Shown: in pieces, positions 17,795 through 55,734 of the stretch
How the letters are laid out: every line of letters begins with the position of its first letter
Position numbering within the stretch: the stretch's first letter is position 1
IMG/VR virus record: IMGVR_UViG_3300030002_000007
Coordinates: 17,479-81,478 of that record
DNA length: 64,000 bases
Reading direction: 5' to 3' (one strand)
Source of the DNA: a virus
Made by a program: the position numbers and the translations under genes
Notes under the pieces: model-generated
The model's database searches: none
Seen by the model: the letters and a program-made list of their open reading frames with translations, nothing else
Told to the model about the DNA's origin: nothing

Positions 17795-17845
17795 ATACTG
17801 AACTCCTAAATCTTTCTTTGTATGAAATTAGAACTGCTCCCTCAG

Positions 17846-17856
17846 AATTTACAGTA
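17846..17856 (-). promoter_or_regulatory. TACTGTAAATT promoter-like box (leftward)
   Basis: It lies 51 bases upstream of the SbcD-like start, on the minus strand, in the divergent strand-switch region. It mirrors the plus-strand copy at 18335. Confidence 0.45.
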
Positions 17857-18042
17857 TGAAAGGTTGCGAGAATTCAGTGAGTCTCTGTAATGATGAAGTC
17901 CTCTCTTCTATAAAACAAGCCAGACTGAAAGTGGGTCCGCGCTTGTCCTGACTTGCAGTTGATCCATCGTGTCCGTAGGACATGGACGGATCCGTTCCTC
18001 AAACGTAAGGTAGGCTCCATGACTCAACTGTTCTTGAACCTA

Positions 18043-18291
18043 GGAAGGGTTTGAGGCTTTAGCCTTCGCTCACCCACACGCTACCTCGAAGGGCGGAGCC
18101 CGAAGAGGGTGGGGGAATATCCGGTGCATTGCTGACTAGAAGGATCCGAACCTAAGAGAGATCCGATCCCTACCGCATCCTCAACCTTTACTGAGAAGCA
18201 AGAGCGATCCCTTCCTTACTGAACCGACAATTCCCCCCGAGGGCTCCGCCCTCTGTCGGGGTGATCAAAGGCTAAAGCCTCAAACCCTTCC
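18043..18291. repeat. Nested inverted repeats (24, 11 and 8 bp)
   Basis: The outer arms 18043-18066 and 18268-18291 are a perfect 24-base inverted repeat. Inside, GGGCGGAGCCC (18091-18101) pairs with GGGCTCCGCCC (18241-18251), and GGGGGAAT (18111-18118) with ATTCCCCC (18230-18237). The order is properly nested, so one long cruciform or RNA stem can form. Each arm also contains its own short palindrome (AGGCTTTAGCCT; GAGGGC/GCCCTC), so local hairpins compete with it. Confidence 0.85.
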
Positions 18292-18334
18292 ATTATTCTT
18301 TTGCGATAGCACTGTGAATGTCCTAGGATTCAAA

Positions 18335-18345
18335 TACTGTAAATT
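18335..18345 (+). promoter_or_regulatory. TACTGTAAATT promoter-like box (rightward)
   Basis: Located 120 bases before the helicase-like start on the plus strand, with AGGGG following. Paired with the leftward copy at 17846. Confidence 0.45.
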
Positions 18346-18464
18346 AGGGGAAATGAATTGTTATCCATCCACGTTCTATAATAAGCAATGACAATTCATT
18401 TCATTCATTGATCTCAGTACGATTTTGGGGCACAGAACAACACATTTCACAGAGGCGAATAAGC

Positions 18465-45041: not shown

Positions 45042-45075
45042 GTCGAATTTCATACATTCACCAACCGAGACGTGT

Positions 45076-45232
45076 TAGTGGAGGTGCAGCCATAGGTGTG
45101 ACCACAACGGAGGCGTAGCCGCGAGTCTACGTAAGGCAGGACGGATTGGGAAAGCAGCGTTCACGTTGCGCACCCCCTAGCGGAGCCGTTGCATCTTGCC
45201 GAGTGCTGGTTCGAATCCAGCCACCTCCACTA
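45076..45232 (+). ncRNA. tRNA-like element (about 157 nt) with canonical T arm and acceptor stem
   Basis: GGAGGTG (45080-45086) pairs with CACCTCC (45222-45228) as a 7-bp acceptor stem, and four more pairs extend it outward. A canonical T arm (GCTGG-TTCGAAT-CCAGC) abuts it. The middle 115 bases do not form normal D and anticodon arms. They hold CGTAG/CTACG, GCAGCG/CGTTGC, and two crossing helices (CAACGG/CCGTTG and GGCAGG/CTTGCC) that would make a pseudoknot. It could be a tRNA with an intron or insertion, a tmRNA-like mimic or a new ncRNA. No CCA is encoded. Confidence 0.5.
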
Positions 45233-45258
45233 ACATTTTTCCAGAAGGAGAGCACAGC

Positions 45259-48173: not shown

Positions 48174-48246
48174 GTATGTGAGAGTGCTCCATTACTCTAT
48201 TTTGGGTGGCTTATGTCACCCACACTTCTCTCAAAGGAAAAAGAAA

Positions 48247-49554
48247 ATGACGCCGCTACAAAAGAAGCTACAACAAGTTCGTACAGAACTGAACAGCCTT
48301 GTGCTCGAGCGTGAAGATGAAACGACGGGCATCCTACTCAGCGTGCTATCAGGTGGCAGCGCCCTATTCTTGGGTGACGTTGGTACTGCCAAAACGATGC
48401 ACATTCAACTAGCCTCAACGATGTTGGGCATGACCAACTTCGACATCCTCATGAGCGAGACGGTGAAGCCCGAGCAAATCTTCGGGCCCACCGACATCCC
48501 GGCACTGGCCAGAGGCGTTCAGCAAACCAAGTACGTCGGCTATGCACCTGACGCGGAGATTCTGTTCTTCGACGAAATCTTCAAGGCGAACGCCACAGTG
48601 CTCAATCCCCTGCTGTGGCTGATCAACGAGCACAAGTTTCGCAATGGCGATAAGGGCGTGATGACTTGCCCTGTTCGTGCGACCTTCGCAGCCTCGAACG
48701 AGATCCCCACCGAGCCGATCCTCAAGGCGATTTATGACCGCCTGCTCTTGCGTTACAACGTGTCGTACCTGAAGGACGAGACGAGTACCCGCAAGCTGAT
48801 CGCCTCTGCCTTGTCGCCCAAAGCTAAGACCGTAGCCATCCTCACTTCGGCTGAGGTGGACGCTTTGCGTGCTCAGGTTCGCAAAGTCAAACTGCCTGAT
48901 GACGTTCGTGATGTTGCCATTCGTATTAGGCGGCAAGTTGAGATGAGCTTGCACTACCAGATTTCTGATCGCCGGTTCGTGAATGCGTTCAAGGTCATGC
49001 AAGCCTCAGCCTTGCTGAAGGGCAACGACGCCGTAGAGCTGCAGGACGTCGAAGTGTTGGCGAACATCCTGTGGAACGAGTTGGCTCACATTCCGAAAGT
49101 GCAGGCCATCGTGTATTCAAACACTTCGGGCGATACGTCAGTACTGTCGACGCTGCTCGAAGAAGCTGTGCAGATCCGCGACTCCTTGCATCAAGGCGGC
49201 AACATTCGCGGCAAGCTGCGTCGGATTCAAGCACTGTACGACACGGTCAAGCAGGCCAGCAGCCGCTACGCCAAGCAAGTCACTGTGGAAATTCGTGCCA
49301 TTGGGTTGTTCGGTCTAGGCTTGCTCACCGAGCGGAAGAAGTTCACGCTGCTCGAAGTTACGATTGCCGAGAAGACCATCTTCAAAGTCAATCAGACGAC
49401 CGCGATGGTGTGGTCAACGATGGAGCTCCGCAAGATGGGCTTCCATACCAAACGCAAGGCTAACTACTGGTACTCAGCCGAACCTATCGGCAAAATTAAG
49501 GCACGGCTGAAGAGTGTCGGTATAGAAGAAGTCATCGTCTCCAAGATGCAGTGA
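48247..49554 (+). CDS. MoxR/RavA/CobS-like AAA+ ATPase
   Basis: 435 residues. Walker A is GDVGTAKT (43-50), Walker B LFFDEIFKAN (about 107), sensor 1 AASNEIP, and an Arg-rich sensor 2 region. The layout fits MoxR/RavA-type AAA+ proteins, which act with VWA-domain partners to remodel protein complexes. The partner is the next gene. AAAGGAAAAAG precedes ATG 48247. Confidence 0.85.
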   Translation: MTPLQKKLQQVRTELNSLVLEREDETTGILLSVLSGGSALFLGDVGTAKTMHIQLASTMLGMTNFDILMSETVKPEQIFGPTDIPALARGVQQTKYVGYAPDAEILFFDEIFKANATVLNPLLWLINEHKFRNGDKGVMTCPVRATFAASNEIPTEPILKAIYDRLLLRYNVSYLKDETSTRKLIASALSPKAKTVAILTSAEVDALRAQVRKVKLPDDVRDVAIRIRRQVEMSLHYQISDRRFVNAFKVMQASALLKGNDAVELQDVEVLANILWNELAHIPKVQAIVYSNTSGDTSVLSTLLEEAVQIRDSLHQGGNIRGKLRRIQALYDTVKQASSRYAKQVTVEIRAIGLFGLGLLTERKKFTLLEVTIAEKTIFKVNQTTAMVWSTMELRKMGFHTKRKANYWYSAEPIGKIKARLKSVGIEEVIVSKMQ

Positions 49555-49561
49555 GGCTATC

Positions 49562-51946
49562 ATGGAAATGTTCCCCGAACAGGCACGCAGTTGTGTGTAT
49601 CGCCTAGTGAAGCACTTCGGAGCAGGCGTGTTTCAGATCCCGCTCTTTTTCTTTGACGGCAATCCACGACTGGTTGCCTACACTGGCATCAACGGCATTG
49701 GGTTGAATCGCAGCCTTCTCCGCACCGACCCATCAAGGCTCGACAAGTACGTGATGCACGAGATTTTCCATGACGTAGTTAGTGATGTGCATTTGACGCA
49801 CCGCTTCTCCGCTGAAATCATGAACTACGCGGAAGACTACAAAATCAACCAGCTCGGTGACGTGCTGTATGGTCACAACTTTAAGGCAAGGCCGCATCCT
49901 GGTCTGCGTGACAAGCGGTACGACAAGCTGTCATTGAAGGCACTGGCTACGCACCTGACGAAAATTCCGCTGCCGAAGACTATGCTCAAGCTGTCGCAGA
50001 AGCCCGGCGTCAACCACACGCTTCACCCTGCGTTGCAGAACCTCGTAGCTAAGCTGCGCCTCGAACTCAGTCAAACGCCGTTGGGCAAATCCATCGGTAT
50101 CACGCCCTTGCATGAGGTCGTGATTCTGTCCGACGATGAGCAGCAGGTTTATTTCAATGTAATGAGCAGTGCCCACAAGAAGTTTGTGTTTGACCAACTG
50201 CCCAATGTCGAACCGATGCTGTTGGTGCAGGGTCTGTTCGGTCGTTTGCATTCGATGTACCCCGCATACAATCGATCAGTGATTGGAGCCAAGCTCACGC
50301 AGACTCAAGCCCTAGTGCTCGGCCCGTCATTAGCCAAGTACGACTTCGCTATTGGTGATCCGCAGTTCGCCATGAGTACTGCCTTGCGCCTAGTTACGAA
50401 ACTGAACTCGGCGCGTGACGTTATCAAGTCCTTGATCTACCACCAAGGGGACCGCCTCCAGAAGTTGTATGATCGCCAAAGTGATATACGCTACAAACTA
50501 AAGGACCTCAAGGCGTCGAAGAATGTATCACCCGTGCTCAAGTCGGTGCGAACGGATCGATTCCTTCTGCGCTTGGAAGCGTTGAAGGCCTCCATTCAAC
50601 ATGCTCATGAACGTATCACGATGCTGGATGAACTACCTGCGTTCATCGATGTGTTGAAAACGGCACCACTTGTTACCTCGTACTCGACTTCAGGAAGAAC
50701 GCCGTCACTGGCAGTAAAGATTCGATCAGAATTATCGCGGCCGTCGTTCCAGCACACCCACATACTCATTCGCATGTGCAACCTCATAATCAACAATGAG
50801 CTCAAACGCATGGCCGTAGTGAAGGAGCTCACGGACAGCATAGACGATGAATTCCCCGAAATGGGAGAGGAAGATCCTGACGAGCCCGAAGAGGCGTCAC
50901 CTGAAGATGACATTGACGACACCCCTACAAAGAAAGACAAGGAAGCCCCTCAAGCGACAGACGAGGACGAGGGTGATGAAGATGAACCCGAAGACGCCAG
51001 TTCGGGTTCGGGTGGTTCGCCCCAAGACGGAGACGGAGACAATGCAGACCCTGACACTGACGCCACTGGCAGTGGGGGCGAAGCTGACGATGACCAGTCA
51101 GACGAAGAACCTAGTGATCTGAATGTGGACGGAAGTGCGGGTGAGGGCAAAGGGCAAGGTAGTCAGTCGGGCGTGTCACACAAGCTCAAAGTAATTGACG
51201 AGCTCGCAGCCAACCCCTCTCTGTTCCGAGCCATACTTCGAGCAGCACATGACTTCGGAGAGAAGCTCACCTCAGCATCGTCACGAAAGGAGAACCCGAA
51301 CGGGCTTCTTGATCGGAGCTTGACGAATGGCAATGACCTGAGTCGAGTCACTCAGTCCGATTTGGGCAGGCTCGGCAATAAGCTAACCAAGCTGTCGTTT
51401 CTGGCCGACCTCGCTAACGGCAACCTGCTGCAGTACGTTGATATTGACCCTCGCCGTAGTCCTGTGGTGCTGTTGCTCGACGCCTCAGGCTCCATGATGA
51501 GTGACGGTTTCTACGTCATGGCTGTCGGGTTTTGCTTAGCGTTGATTCGCAAGCTGCAAGACGCCAAGCGAGGTGTGGTGCTAATCATGTTCGCCAGTGG
51601 CATCGATCACGTAATGGTTTGGGACAAGATGGAGCAGGTGCCACTTCTGACGTTACTGCGCACGGTTGCCACTCCGTCAAGTGGCGGCACGGTGTTTGAT
51701 ACGGCGTTGCGTGCTGGCTACAAGCAGATCGCTGATCGACATTGGAACCAGGCACAGGTGCTGCTAGTGTCCGACGGAGGCGGGTGCATTAGCCCTGAAG
51801 TGGCGATGGAGAAACCCAAGAATGTCACGCTGACTGCGGTGCTAGTTGATAGGAATGCCCACATTGAAGGGGCCGACATGGAAATACACACCAAGCTGCA
51901 AGGCACCGAGCTGAGCTTGATTTCAGCAGGTCGCGCCGTCCTTTAG
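49562..51946 (+). CDS. Metallopeptidase-like plus VWA domain protein (MoxR partner)
   Basis: 794 residues. The N-terminal H66-E67-x2-H70 followed by NYAEDYKIN resembles the DUF2201-type metallopeptidase-like domain often fused to VWA. A long Asp/Glu-rich linker (about 435-540) leads to a C-terminal VWA domain with the MIDAS motif DASGS (640-644) and a later Thr/Asp (VSDGG). With the AAA+ gene it forms a chaperone-like MoxR-VWA pair. In bacteria such pairs (RavA-ViaA, CobS-CobT) insert metals or remodel complexes; the phage role is not established. Confidence 0.8.
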   Translation: MEMFPEQARSCVYRLVKHFGAGVFQIPLFFFDGNPRLVAYTGINGIGLNRSLLRTDPSRLDKYVMHEIFHDVVSDVHLTHRFSAEIMNYAEDYKINQLGDVLYGHNFKARPHPGLRDKRYDKLSLKALATHLTKIPLPKTMLKLSQKPGVNHTLHPALQNLVAKLRLELSQTPLGKSIGITPLHEVVILSDDEQQVYFNVMSSAHKKFVFDQLPNVEPMLLVQGLFGRLHSMYPAYNRSVIGAKLTQTQALVLGPSLAKYDFAIGDPQFAMSTALRLVTKLNSARDVIKSLIYHQGDRLQKLYDRQSDIRYKLKDLKASKNVSPVLKSVRTDRFLLRLEALKASIQHAHERITMLDELPAFIDVLKTAPLVTSYSTSGRTPSLAVKIRSELSRPSFQHTHILIRMCNLIINNELKRMAVVKELTDSIDDEFPEMGEEDPDEPEEASPEDDIDDTPTKKDKEAPQATDEDEGDEDEPEDASSGSGGSPQDGDGDNADPDTDATGSGGEADDDQSDEEPSDLNVDGSAGEGKGQGSQSGVSHKLKVIDELAANPSLFRAILRAAHDFGEKLTSASSRKENPNGLLDRSLTNGNDLSRVTQSDLGRLGNKLTKLSFLADLANGNLLQYVDIDPRRSPVVLLLDASGSMMSDGFYVMAVGFCLALIRKLQDAKRGVVLIMFASGIDHVMVWDKMEQVPLLTLLRTVATPSSGGTVFDTALRAGYKQIADRHWNQAQVLLVSDGGGCISPEVAMEKPKNVTLTAVLVDRNAHIEGADMEIHTKLQGTELSLISAGRAVL

Positions 51947-54850: not shown

Positions 54851-54854
54851 GGGC

Positions 54855-54962
54855 GGGCGCTCAGCGTTAGTTCCGAGCCAAGCTGAAGGCTTCAAACATA
54901 ATCCCACAAGAGCCGGAGTGGGAAGCCGGTTGCGAACCCGGTAGACCTCATTTCGAGCGCCC
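54855..54962 (+). ncRNA. Stem-closed structured segment (108 nt)
   Basis: GGGCGCTC pairs with GAGCGCCC. Inside are GAGCC/GGCTT, CCCAC/GTGGG and CCGG-TTGCGAAC-CCGG. The arm layout recalls a tRNA with a long variable arm, but a normal T arm next to the acceptor stem is lacking. CCCAAG/CTTGGG just downstream can compete with the closing stem. Confidence 0.4.
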
Positions 54963-55000
54963 AAGGCATGGCCTACCAGAGCTACTTGGGTGACTAAGGC

Positions 55001-55077
55001 GGCCCCATAGCTTAGTGGTTAGAGCGGCGAGGTGAAAATAGTACTCGTAGACGGAGGTTCGATTCCTCTTGGGGCCG
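55001..55077 (+). tRNA. tRNA with 12-base anticodon loop
   Basis: Acceptor GGCCCCA/TGGGGCC (two further pairs outside), TA linker, D arm GCTT-AGTGGTTA-GAGC, anticodon stem GCGAG/CTCGT, variable AGAC, T arm GGAGG-TTCGATT-CCTCT, discriminator G. All arms are canonical except the anticodon loop: 12 bases (GTGAAAATAGTA) instead of 7. The anticodon therefore cannot be assigned. It may carry a 5-base insertion or mini-intron, decode unusually, or be a decoy or degraded gene. No CCA is encoded. Confidence 0.65.
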
Positions 55078-55090
55078 CACGAACATTTTG

Positions 55091-55385
55091 AAGTCTTAGG
55101 TCAGCGCCGGCGTGGATTGGACACGCTAAGCACGATGCAGAAACACGGAATTGTCACCGCATGCAAGCTCTGCAATCAACAGGGATGGATTTCCCCAAGA
55201 TAGTCAACTTGCTAGACGCGGCCCTCGGCATTTTACGAGTGCTTCCGAAGCGGGTATTCGACAACTGCGAAGGTGTGTATAGGAAAATTACATGGGCCCT
55301 GTGGACGCACATCCCTGTGGAGGCCGCTGCCTAGTGTGCGGCTGATCGGGTATCAAGCCCCGAGCGCTGACCTAAGACTTTTTTT
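55091..55385 (+). ncRNA. Large structured RNA closed by a 17-bp helix
   Basis: AAGTCTTAGGTCAGCGC (55091-55107) is exactly complementary to 55364-55380, which runs into seven Ts. This looks like a P1 helix that also serves as the terminator. Internal stems include GCGTG-GATTGGA-CACGC, TGCAGA/TCTGCA, GCGGCC/GGCCGC and CGGG-TATCAAG-CCCG. No RNase P, tmRNA or group I/II signature was found. Directly follows the tRNA. Confidence 0.6.
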
Positions 55386-55392
55386 GTGGAGT

Positions 55393-55734
55393 ATGGCAAT
55401 GACAATCGTAACCAAAGCAGCAACACCAGATTACCTTTCTGGTCATGAGCGTATTTGGGGCAGCAAGAAGAACAGCCTGATTGATTTCAAGGTGGTCTGT
55501 GATGCCTCTAATCAAGATCCCCTGGATACGGCACCTCAGCCGGTGCGACTTGGAACCAAGGTCATTATTGATGGCGTGCCTAAGGTGTTTACCGAACAAG
55601 AGTGGGTGCCGAGTAAGAAGGAAGAAGTAACTTCGTTCGGTGGGCCGAGTAAGACAATAACCCTCCGCACCGAAGACATATTGCCTCTTCCCACGAGCGC
55701 GGAAGATGGCGTCACCAAGTCGCTGGATGACTAA
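55393..55734 (+). CDS. Hypothetical 113-residue protein
   Basis: TGTGGAGT precedes ATG 55393, just after the RNA's T run. Beta-rich (TKVIIDGVPKVFTEQEW). The stop overlaps the DenV-like start (TAATG). Confidence 0.6.
   Translation: MAMTIVTKAATPDYLSGHERIWGSKKNSLIDFKVVCDASNQDPLDTAPQPVRLGTKVIIDGVPKVFTEQEWVPSKKEEVTSFGGPSKTITLRTEDILPLPTSAEDGVTKSLDD

What the first reader, a model, noticed from the sequence alone, without database searches (positions are those of the whole stretch)
55091..55385. 295-nt RNA closed by a perfect 17-bp helix that doubles as terminator
The exact complement 270 bases apart, ending in T7, is hard to explain by chance and gives a defined 5' and 3' end. Multiple internal stems are present and I could not match it to a known RNA class. 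It directly follows the tRNA.
Basis: partly seen in the sequence, partly recalled or inferred. Interest (0 to 1): 0.72.

Follow-up and report, generated by a model that had tools for sequence, protein, structure and literature searches.

The report
Phage tRNA-like RNA on a stalk
In a large uncultured virus of bacteria, a stretch just after a transfer-RNA gene is predicted to make a 290-base RNA whose two ends zip together perfectly and carry tRNA-like arms at their inner end; it resembles in plan, but is unrelated in sequence to, a stable RNA of phage T4 whose role has stayed unknown.

Summary
The inverted repeat is real: perfect 17-bp arms (55091-55107, 55364-55380), then U7, 13 nt after a tRNA gene. 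The 'multiple internal stems' are not supported: the interior folds no better than shuffled sequence (z -0.09). What stands out is where two hairpins sit. A T-arm-shaped hairpin abuts the 3' arm, and a D-arm-shaped hairpin with GG in its loop starts 2 nt inside the 5' arm, as in a tRNA, with about 220 nt where the anticodon arm would be. A second element in the same contig (45073-45240; 14-bp helix, U5) has a canonical T-arm abutting its helix. In about 2.5 Mb of large-phage DNA these are the only two inverted repeats with both a T-arm-shaped hairpin and a U-run. The nearest known thing is T4 species 1 RNA (rnaC), whose acceptor stem and T-arm I found supported by compensatory changes; a model of that family does not match here, so it is alike in plan, not a member. 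No homologue, no Rfam match, no expression data. Best reading: a tRNA-like stable phage RNA whose closing stalk also ends the tRNA transcript. Function is inferred. New variant of a known kind.

The parts
55091..55107 (+). 5' arm of the perfect 17-bp closing helix; inner 7 nt (55101-55107) correspond to an acceptor-stem strand
   Evidence: exact complement of 55364-55380
55110..55126 (+). D-arm-shaped hairpin GCGTG-GATTGGA-CACGC, 2-nt linker from the closing helix, GG in loop
   Evidence: pair probability 0.99; 5' hairpin with 2-nt linker and GG in 0.22% of shuffles
55127..55345 (+). 219-nt unique insert in the place of anticodon arm and variable loop; no excess fold stability; 57-aa ORF 55161-55334 with no homologue
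   Evidence: interior z -0.09; codon test undecided; no family or tblastn match
55346..55363 (+). T-arm-shaped hairpin TCGGG-TATCAAGC-CCCGA abutting the 3' arm; 8-nt loop resembles T-loop TTCAAGC with one extra A
   Evidence: 0.195% of shuffles; pair probability about 0.4-0.56
55364..55380 (+). 3' arm of the closing helix; C-CTA follows the acceptor-like 7 nt
55379..55385 (+). T7 run at the end of the helix (possible intrinsic terminator tail)
   Evidence: one of two T>=7 runs on the + strand of the window
55001..55078 (+). tRNA gene 13 nt upstream; called tRNA-Ile(aat) by default, better read as tRNA-Phe(GAA) with about 5 extra nt in the anticodon loop
   Evidence: Rfam tRNA 57.1 bits; ARAGORN intron mode gives Phe; aligns with tRNA-Phe of three large phages
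45073..45240 (+). second element of the same plan: 14-bp closing helix, canonical T-arm GCTGG-TTCGAAT-CCAGC abutting it, then T5
   Evidence: Rfam tRNA 25.6 bits, E 0.003, below the gathering score of 29
54855..54962 (+). possible further structured RNA just before the tRNA: 8-bp closing helix round three hairpins
   Evidence: z -3.1, 0 of 200 shuffles; with more flank z -1.3, 20 of 200; no Rfam match

Best explanation
55091-55385 is the last unit of a small RNA cassette (54851-55385): it is transcribed with the tRNA-Phe-like gene just upstream and makes a tRNA-like, untranslated RNA. The inner 7 bp of the 17-bp helix act as an acceptor stem, followed by a 2-nt linker and D-arm on one side and a T-arm on the other, so the base of the helix can form a tRNA-like elbow; a 219-nt unique segment replaces the anticodon arm. 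The outer 10 bp pair leader with trailer, clamp both ends and, with the U-run, end the transcript. 45073-45240 is a second RNA of this plan. Shown: helix, U-run, position and shape of the arms, recurrence in the contig. Inferred: transcription, termination, elbow formation, stability. Most likely role, by inference only: a stable tRNA mimic that occupies a tRNA-handling protein of the host (a nuclease, RNase P, EF-Tu or a modification enzyme).
For: Arms and U-run. D-arm-shaped hairpin with 2-nt linker and GG in 0.22% and abutting T-arm-shaped hairpin in 0.195% of 20,000 shuffles; a 5' hairpin and a T-arm-shaped hairpin together in none. Of 1340 strand-oriented inverted repeats >=10 bp in four large phages, 6 have an abutting T-arm-shaped hairpin, and only this one has both. 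Of 748 with arms >=11 bp in 2.49 Mb, 4 have the T-arm shape and 7 a T5 run; only this element and 45073-45240 combine them. The second element's T-arm is canonical and its 3' end matches tRNA genes of named phages. Both carry C-T-A where tRNA has CCA. T4 rnaC has the same ends: acceptor stem plus abutting T-arm, three pairs with compensatory changes, next to tRNA genes.
Against: The tRNA-likeness was noticed before it was tested, so the p-values are after the fact. The T-loop has 8 nt and the T-arm is only about half populated in the ensemble. No anticodon-arm-like stem forms (pair probability 0). The Rfam tRNA model does not find it. The interior has no excess stability. No homologue exists in any collection searched, so nothing tests conservation. 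No sigma-70-like promoter upstream. Terminating through a 256-nt loop is unusual.
Confidence: 0.48

Rival explanations
1. Only the closing helix matters: a long-range stem with U-run ends and protects the tRNA transcript before the gene at 55393; the interior is unconstrained filler and the two hairpins are chance.
For: Interior z -0.09. Long perfect helices stand directly after tRNA 3' ends in other large phages (BcepSauron 117307-117404, 20 bp; L093 11596-11694, 14 bp) without T-arm hairpins.
Against: Arms placed as in a tRNA in a joint pattern seen in none of 20,000 shuffles and once in 1340 repeats; the second element has an unmistakable T-arm in the same place.
Confidence: 0.22
2. A degenerate tRNA or tmRNA: a tRNA gene split by an insertion, or a tmRNA decayed beyond recognition, with no present function.
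For: tmRNA-like size; loop GGATTGGAC resembles the tmRNA GGNUUCGAC element (own comparison); a related phage carries a permuted tmRNA; the tRNA upstream has an odd anticodon loop.
Against: No tmRNA or tRNA model matches even at E<=10; no G3-U70 pair, no CCA; a decayed gene should not keep a perfect 17-bp helix with T7.
Confidence: 0.12
3. A messenger for the 57-aa ORF (55161-55334), held inactive by pairing of its two ends, as in hok-type toxin mRNAs.
For: Open frame of 57 codons; codon score lies midway between genes and wrong frames; end-to-end pairing recalls hok mRNA (own knowledge).
Against: No ribosome-binding site seen; no PHROGs match; tblastn best E about 1; such a frame is expected by chance in six frames; no antisense RNA was looked for.
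Confidence: 0.1
4. A small non-autonomous mobile element whose 17-bp terminal inverted repeats are the arms.
For: Perfect terminal inverted repeats; TTTTG flanks both sides, with one extra T on the right.
Against: No second copy in the contig, none in phages; paired arms not found in the genome collection and only by chance in viral contigs.
Confidence: 0.05

Closest known systems
T4 species 1 RNA (rnaC, RNAC), Tevenvirinae
   Same: Phage-encoded, at the end of a run of tRNA genes; 7-bp acceptor-like closing stem with a T-arm abutting its 3' strand and no CCA; unique interior; role unknown (PMC3014915, PMC9697503)
   Different: 139 nt against 290; no 17-bp stalk or U-run at the helix; no D-arm-shaped hairpin; covariance model of the rnaC family finds nothing in the window
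tmRNA, including the permuted form carried by a related large phage (L094)
   Same: tRNA-like end holding a long insert; similar length; present in a related phage
   Different: no match to any tmRNA model; no CCA, no G3-U70; L094's tmRNA lies elsewhere and is not similar
GOLLD and ROOL RNAs
   Same: large non-coding RNAs (PMC12286853), often near tRNA genes in phages and prophages (own knowledge)
   Different: no Rfam match; far shorter; no rich folding of the interior
Leader-trailer stalks of rRNA precursors (RNase III processing stems)
   Same: long perfect helix joining both ends of an RNA
   Different: here followed by a U-run and with no known mature RNA; analogy from own knowledge

Membership tests
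T4 species 1 RNA (rnaC) | sequence and structure of the family (covariance model from six phages) | tested here: not met
   no match in the window at E<=10; the model finds T4 and Salmonella phage Melville
T4 species 1 RNA (rnaC) | acceptor-like closing stem with T-arm abutting its 3' strand | tested here: met
   closing helix plus TCGGG-TATCAAGC-CCCGA; canonical in 45073-45240; the feature itself is supported in rnaC by compensatory changes
T4 species 1 RNA (rnaC) | beside tRNA gene(s) in a phage | tested here: met
   13 nt after the tRNA
T4 species 1 RNA (rnaC) | accumulates as a stable small RNA | not testable with these tools
   no expression data for this phage
tRNA | match to the tRNA model (RF00005) | tested here: not met
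   no match at E<=10 over 55085-55390
tRNA | anticodon arm | tested here: not met
   the candidate stem has pair probability 0
tmRNA | match to a tmRNA model of Rfam | tested here: not met
   none at E<=10
tmRNA | alanine identity (G3-U70) and CCA end | tested here: not met
   A-U at the third pair of the acceptor-like stem, C-CTA follows
Intrinsic terminator | stem directly followed by a U-run | tested here: met
   17 bp then T7
Intrinsic terminator | short loop | tested here: not met
   256 nt between the arms; a scan with loops of 3-8 does not list it
Mobile element with terminal inverted repeats | more than one copy | tested here: not met

The most novel reading that the evidence does not exclude
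The phage makes at least two RNAs of a new tRNA-mimic design: a tRNA elbow (D- and T-arm) set on a long stalk that also ends the transcript, carrying a unique payload in place of the anticodon arm, and used against host tRNA-directed enzymes or defences.
Probability: 0.25. Interest if true: 0.68.

Novelty: new variant of a known kind. Interest (0 to 1): 0.42.

Why it matters
[quoted passage not shown] A phage from another lineage with RNAs built on the same end plan, unrelated in sequence, would suggest that tRNA-like non-tRNA RNAs arise repeatedly in phages with tRNA genes, and that the acceptor plus T-arm end is what is selected. It also gives a simple way to look for more: inverted repeats with a T-arm hairpin abutting the 3' arm, which tRNA finders pass over.

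Tried and rejected
Homology searches of the element and its cassette: phages blastn, megablast of 24 kb (7), arm-pair patterns in viral contigs (51: four chance hits, none extends outward or resembles the interior) and genomes (52), proteins next to it (10, 11, 18, 31, 87, 88), whole records of relatives (36, 101: one clear match, the tRNA itself, E 2e-4; the rest at chance level). Group I intron: some core-like words seen by eye, but in the wrong order and no Rfam match; rejected. RNase P RNA, 6S and GOLLD/ROOL: no Rfam match. Sequence similarity between the element, 45073-45240, 54855-54962 and 18043-18291: none above shuffles, so the two tRNA-like elements share plan, not sequence. ARAGORN at lowered thresholds returns hundreds of false genes and was not used.

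Full report
Setting. The window is 17479-81478 of an 81,478-base virus record, linear, probably a fragment. It encodes a T4-like two-subunit topoisomerase, Dda-like helicase, family A DNA polymerase, NAD-dependent ligase, a MoxR ATPase and dCTP deaminase, so it is a piece of a large tailed phage. The nearest relatives found are Burkholderia phage BcepSauron (GyrA-like 51%, part of the gene order kept) and a 238-kb IMG/VR record, G002 (39%). No close relative was found in any collection.

Observation. Arms 55091-55107 and 55364-55380 are perfect complements and T7 follows. In the contig only a 24-bp repeat (18043-18291) is longer; third comes a 14-bp repeat at 45073-45235, also followed directly by T5. 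The whole folds at z -3.7 to -4.0, but the interior alone is at z -0.09, like the controls on either side. So the 'multiple internal stems' are what any such sequence would show.

What is special inside. The hairpin next to the 3' arm, TCGGG-TATCAAGC-CCCGA (55346-55363), has five Watson-Crick pairs and no nucleotide between it and the closing helix, like the T-arm of a tRNA; its loop reads as the T-loop TTCAAGC with an extra A. The hairpin next to the 5' arm, GCGTG-GATTGGA-CACGC (55110-55126), begins after two nucleotides, as the D-arm does after positions 8 and 9, and has GG in its loop. In 20,000 shuffles the strict D-arm-shaped case arose in 0.22%, the T-arm-shaped case in 0.195%, both kinds together never. 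As a natural null, 1340 strand-oriented inverted repeats of at least 10 bp in four large phages gave six with an abutting T-arm-shaped hairpin and one, this one, with both; 748 repeats in 2.49 Mb gave four with the T-arm shape, and only this one and 45073-45240 also have a U-run. The test was framed after the pattern was seen, so these numbers overstate the case somewhat.

The second element. 45073-45240 has a canonical T-arm (GCTGG-TTCGAAT-CCAGC) abutting a 14-bp helix whose inner seven pairs are GGAGGTG/CACCTCC, then T5. ARAGORN reports a tRNA there only when a long insertion is allowed; the Rfam tRNA model gives 25.6 bits, under its gathering score of 29; blastn matches its 3' end to tRNA genes of named phages. 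Both elements have C-T-A where a tRNA has CCA. They share no sequence.

The cassette. 54851-55385, between two genes, holds a possible structured stretch (54855-54962), the tRNA and the element. The stretch is weak: z -3.1 when cut exactly at its helix, -1.3 with flanks. The tRNA, called Ile(aat) by default, aligns with tRNA-Phe(GAA) of G002, G004 and BcepSauron and carries about five extra nucleotides in its anticodon loop.

Comparison with T4. T4 rnaC (species 1 RNA) lies at the end of the T4 tRNA run. Its 3' end is a T-arm followed by a stretch that pairs with its 5' end. Aligning six relatives, including Enterobacter and Yersinia phages, the acceptor stem and T-arm are supported by three pairs with changes on both sides, and sliding the partner strand destroys the signal. 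rnaC is therefore a tRNA-ended non-tRNA RNA. A covariance model of that family finds T4 and a Salmonella phage, but nothing in the window. So the window's elements are like rnaC in plan and are not shown to be members. The literature gives rnaC no role (PMC3014915; PMC9697503 classes it as a late RNA, checked by Northern blot).

Mechanism. The best-supported reading is a tRNA-like stable RNA co-transcribed with the tRNA. The outer 10 bp of the helix pair leader and trailer, which would hide both ends from exonucleases and, with the U-run, could end the transcript. Whether a helix with a 256-nt loop can terminate transcription is open: the 5' arm must stay free until the 3' arm emerges. The role as tRNA mimic is inference from shape. 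The rival that only the helix matters is serious, because other large phages have long perfect helices right after tRNA 3' ends without any T-arm (BcepSauron, 20 bp; L093, 14 bp).

Limits. No homologue, hence no covariation; no expression data; the T-arm is about half populated in the predicted ensemble; the 57-aa ORF inside cannot be excluded as coding.

Noticed in passing
window 18043-18291 (within 17795-18407): 24-bp perfect inverted repeat 249 nt long with a nested 12-bp repeat (z -7.4), in the intergenic space between divergently transcribed genes, which holds further long inverted repeats (17846/18345, 18350/18402). Possibly an origin or regulatory region; no Rfam match.
   Followed up: partly
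window 55001-55078: tRNA-Phe(GAA)-like gene with about 5 extra nucleotides in the anticodon loop; the default run names it Ile(aat). Decoy, intron or decayed gene is open.
   Followed up: partly
BcepSauron NC_049851.1 117250-117404: An orphan tRNA 3' half ending in CCA, with no matching 5' acceptor strand found upstream, runs directly into a 98-nt element closed by a perfect 20-bp helix.
   Followed up: partly
L093 11512-11694: tRNA-Leu whose CCA end runs straight into a 99-nt element closed by a 14-bp perfect helix.
   Followed up: no
L094 11530-11694 and 11787-12194: Large phage with a permuted tmRNA (tag ANDENFRMVA) and, about 90 nt upstream of it, a 165-nt element closed by a 16-bp perfect helix.
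   Followed up: partly
G002:C1:62011-62187: 177-nt stretch closed by a perfect 19-bp helix, shortly before an ATG with a ribosome-binding-site-like sequence.
   Followed up: no
L110-L114 (Enterobacter, Yersinia, Salmonella phages): Homologues of T4 rnaC, not annotated as rnaC in these records; in Yersinia phage fHe-Yen9-01 the acceptor stem is fully paired over 7 bp.
   Followed up: partly
window 48178-51946: MoxR ATPase gene followed by a gene for a 794-aa protein with a C-terminal stretch like a von Willebrand A domain (read by eye); no counterpart in the stretch of BcepSauron compared, and neither has a close relative in viral contigs.
   Followed up: no
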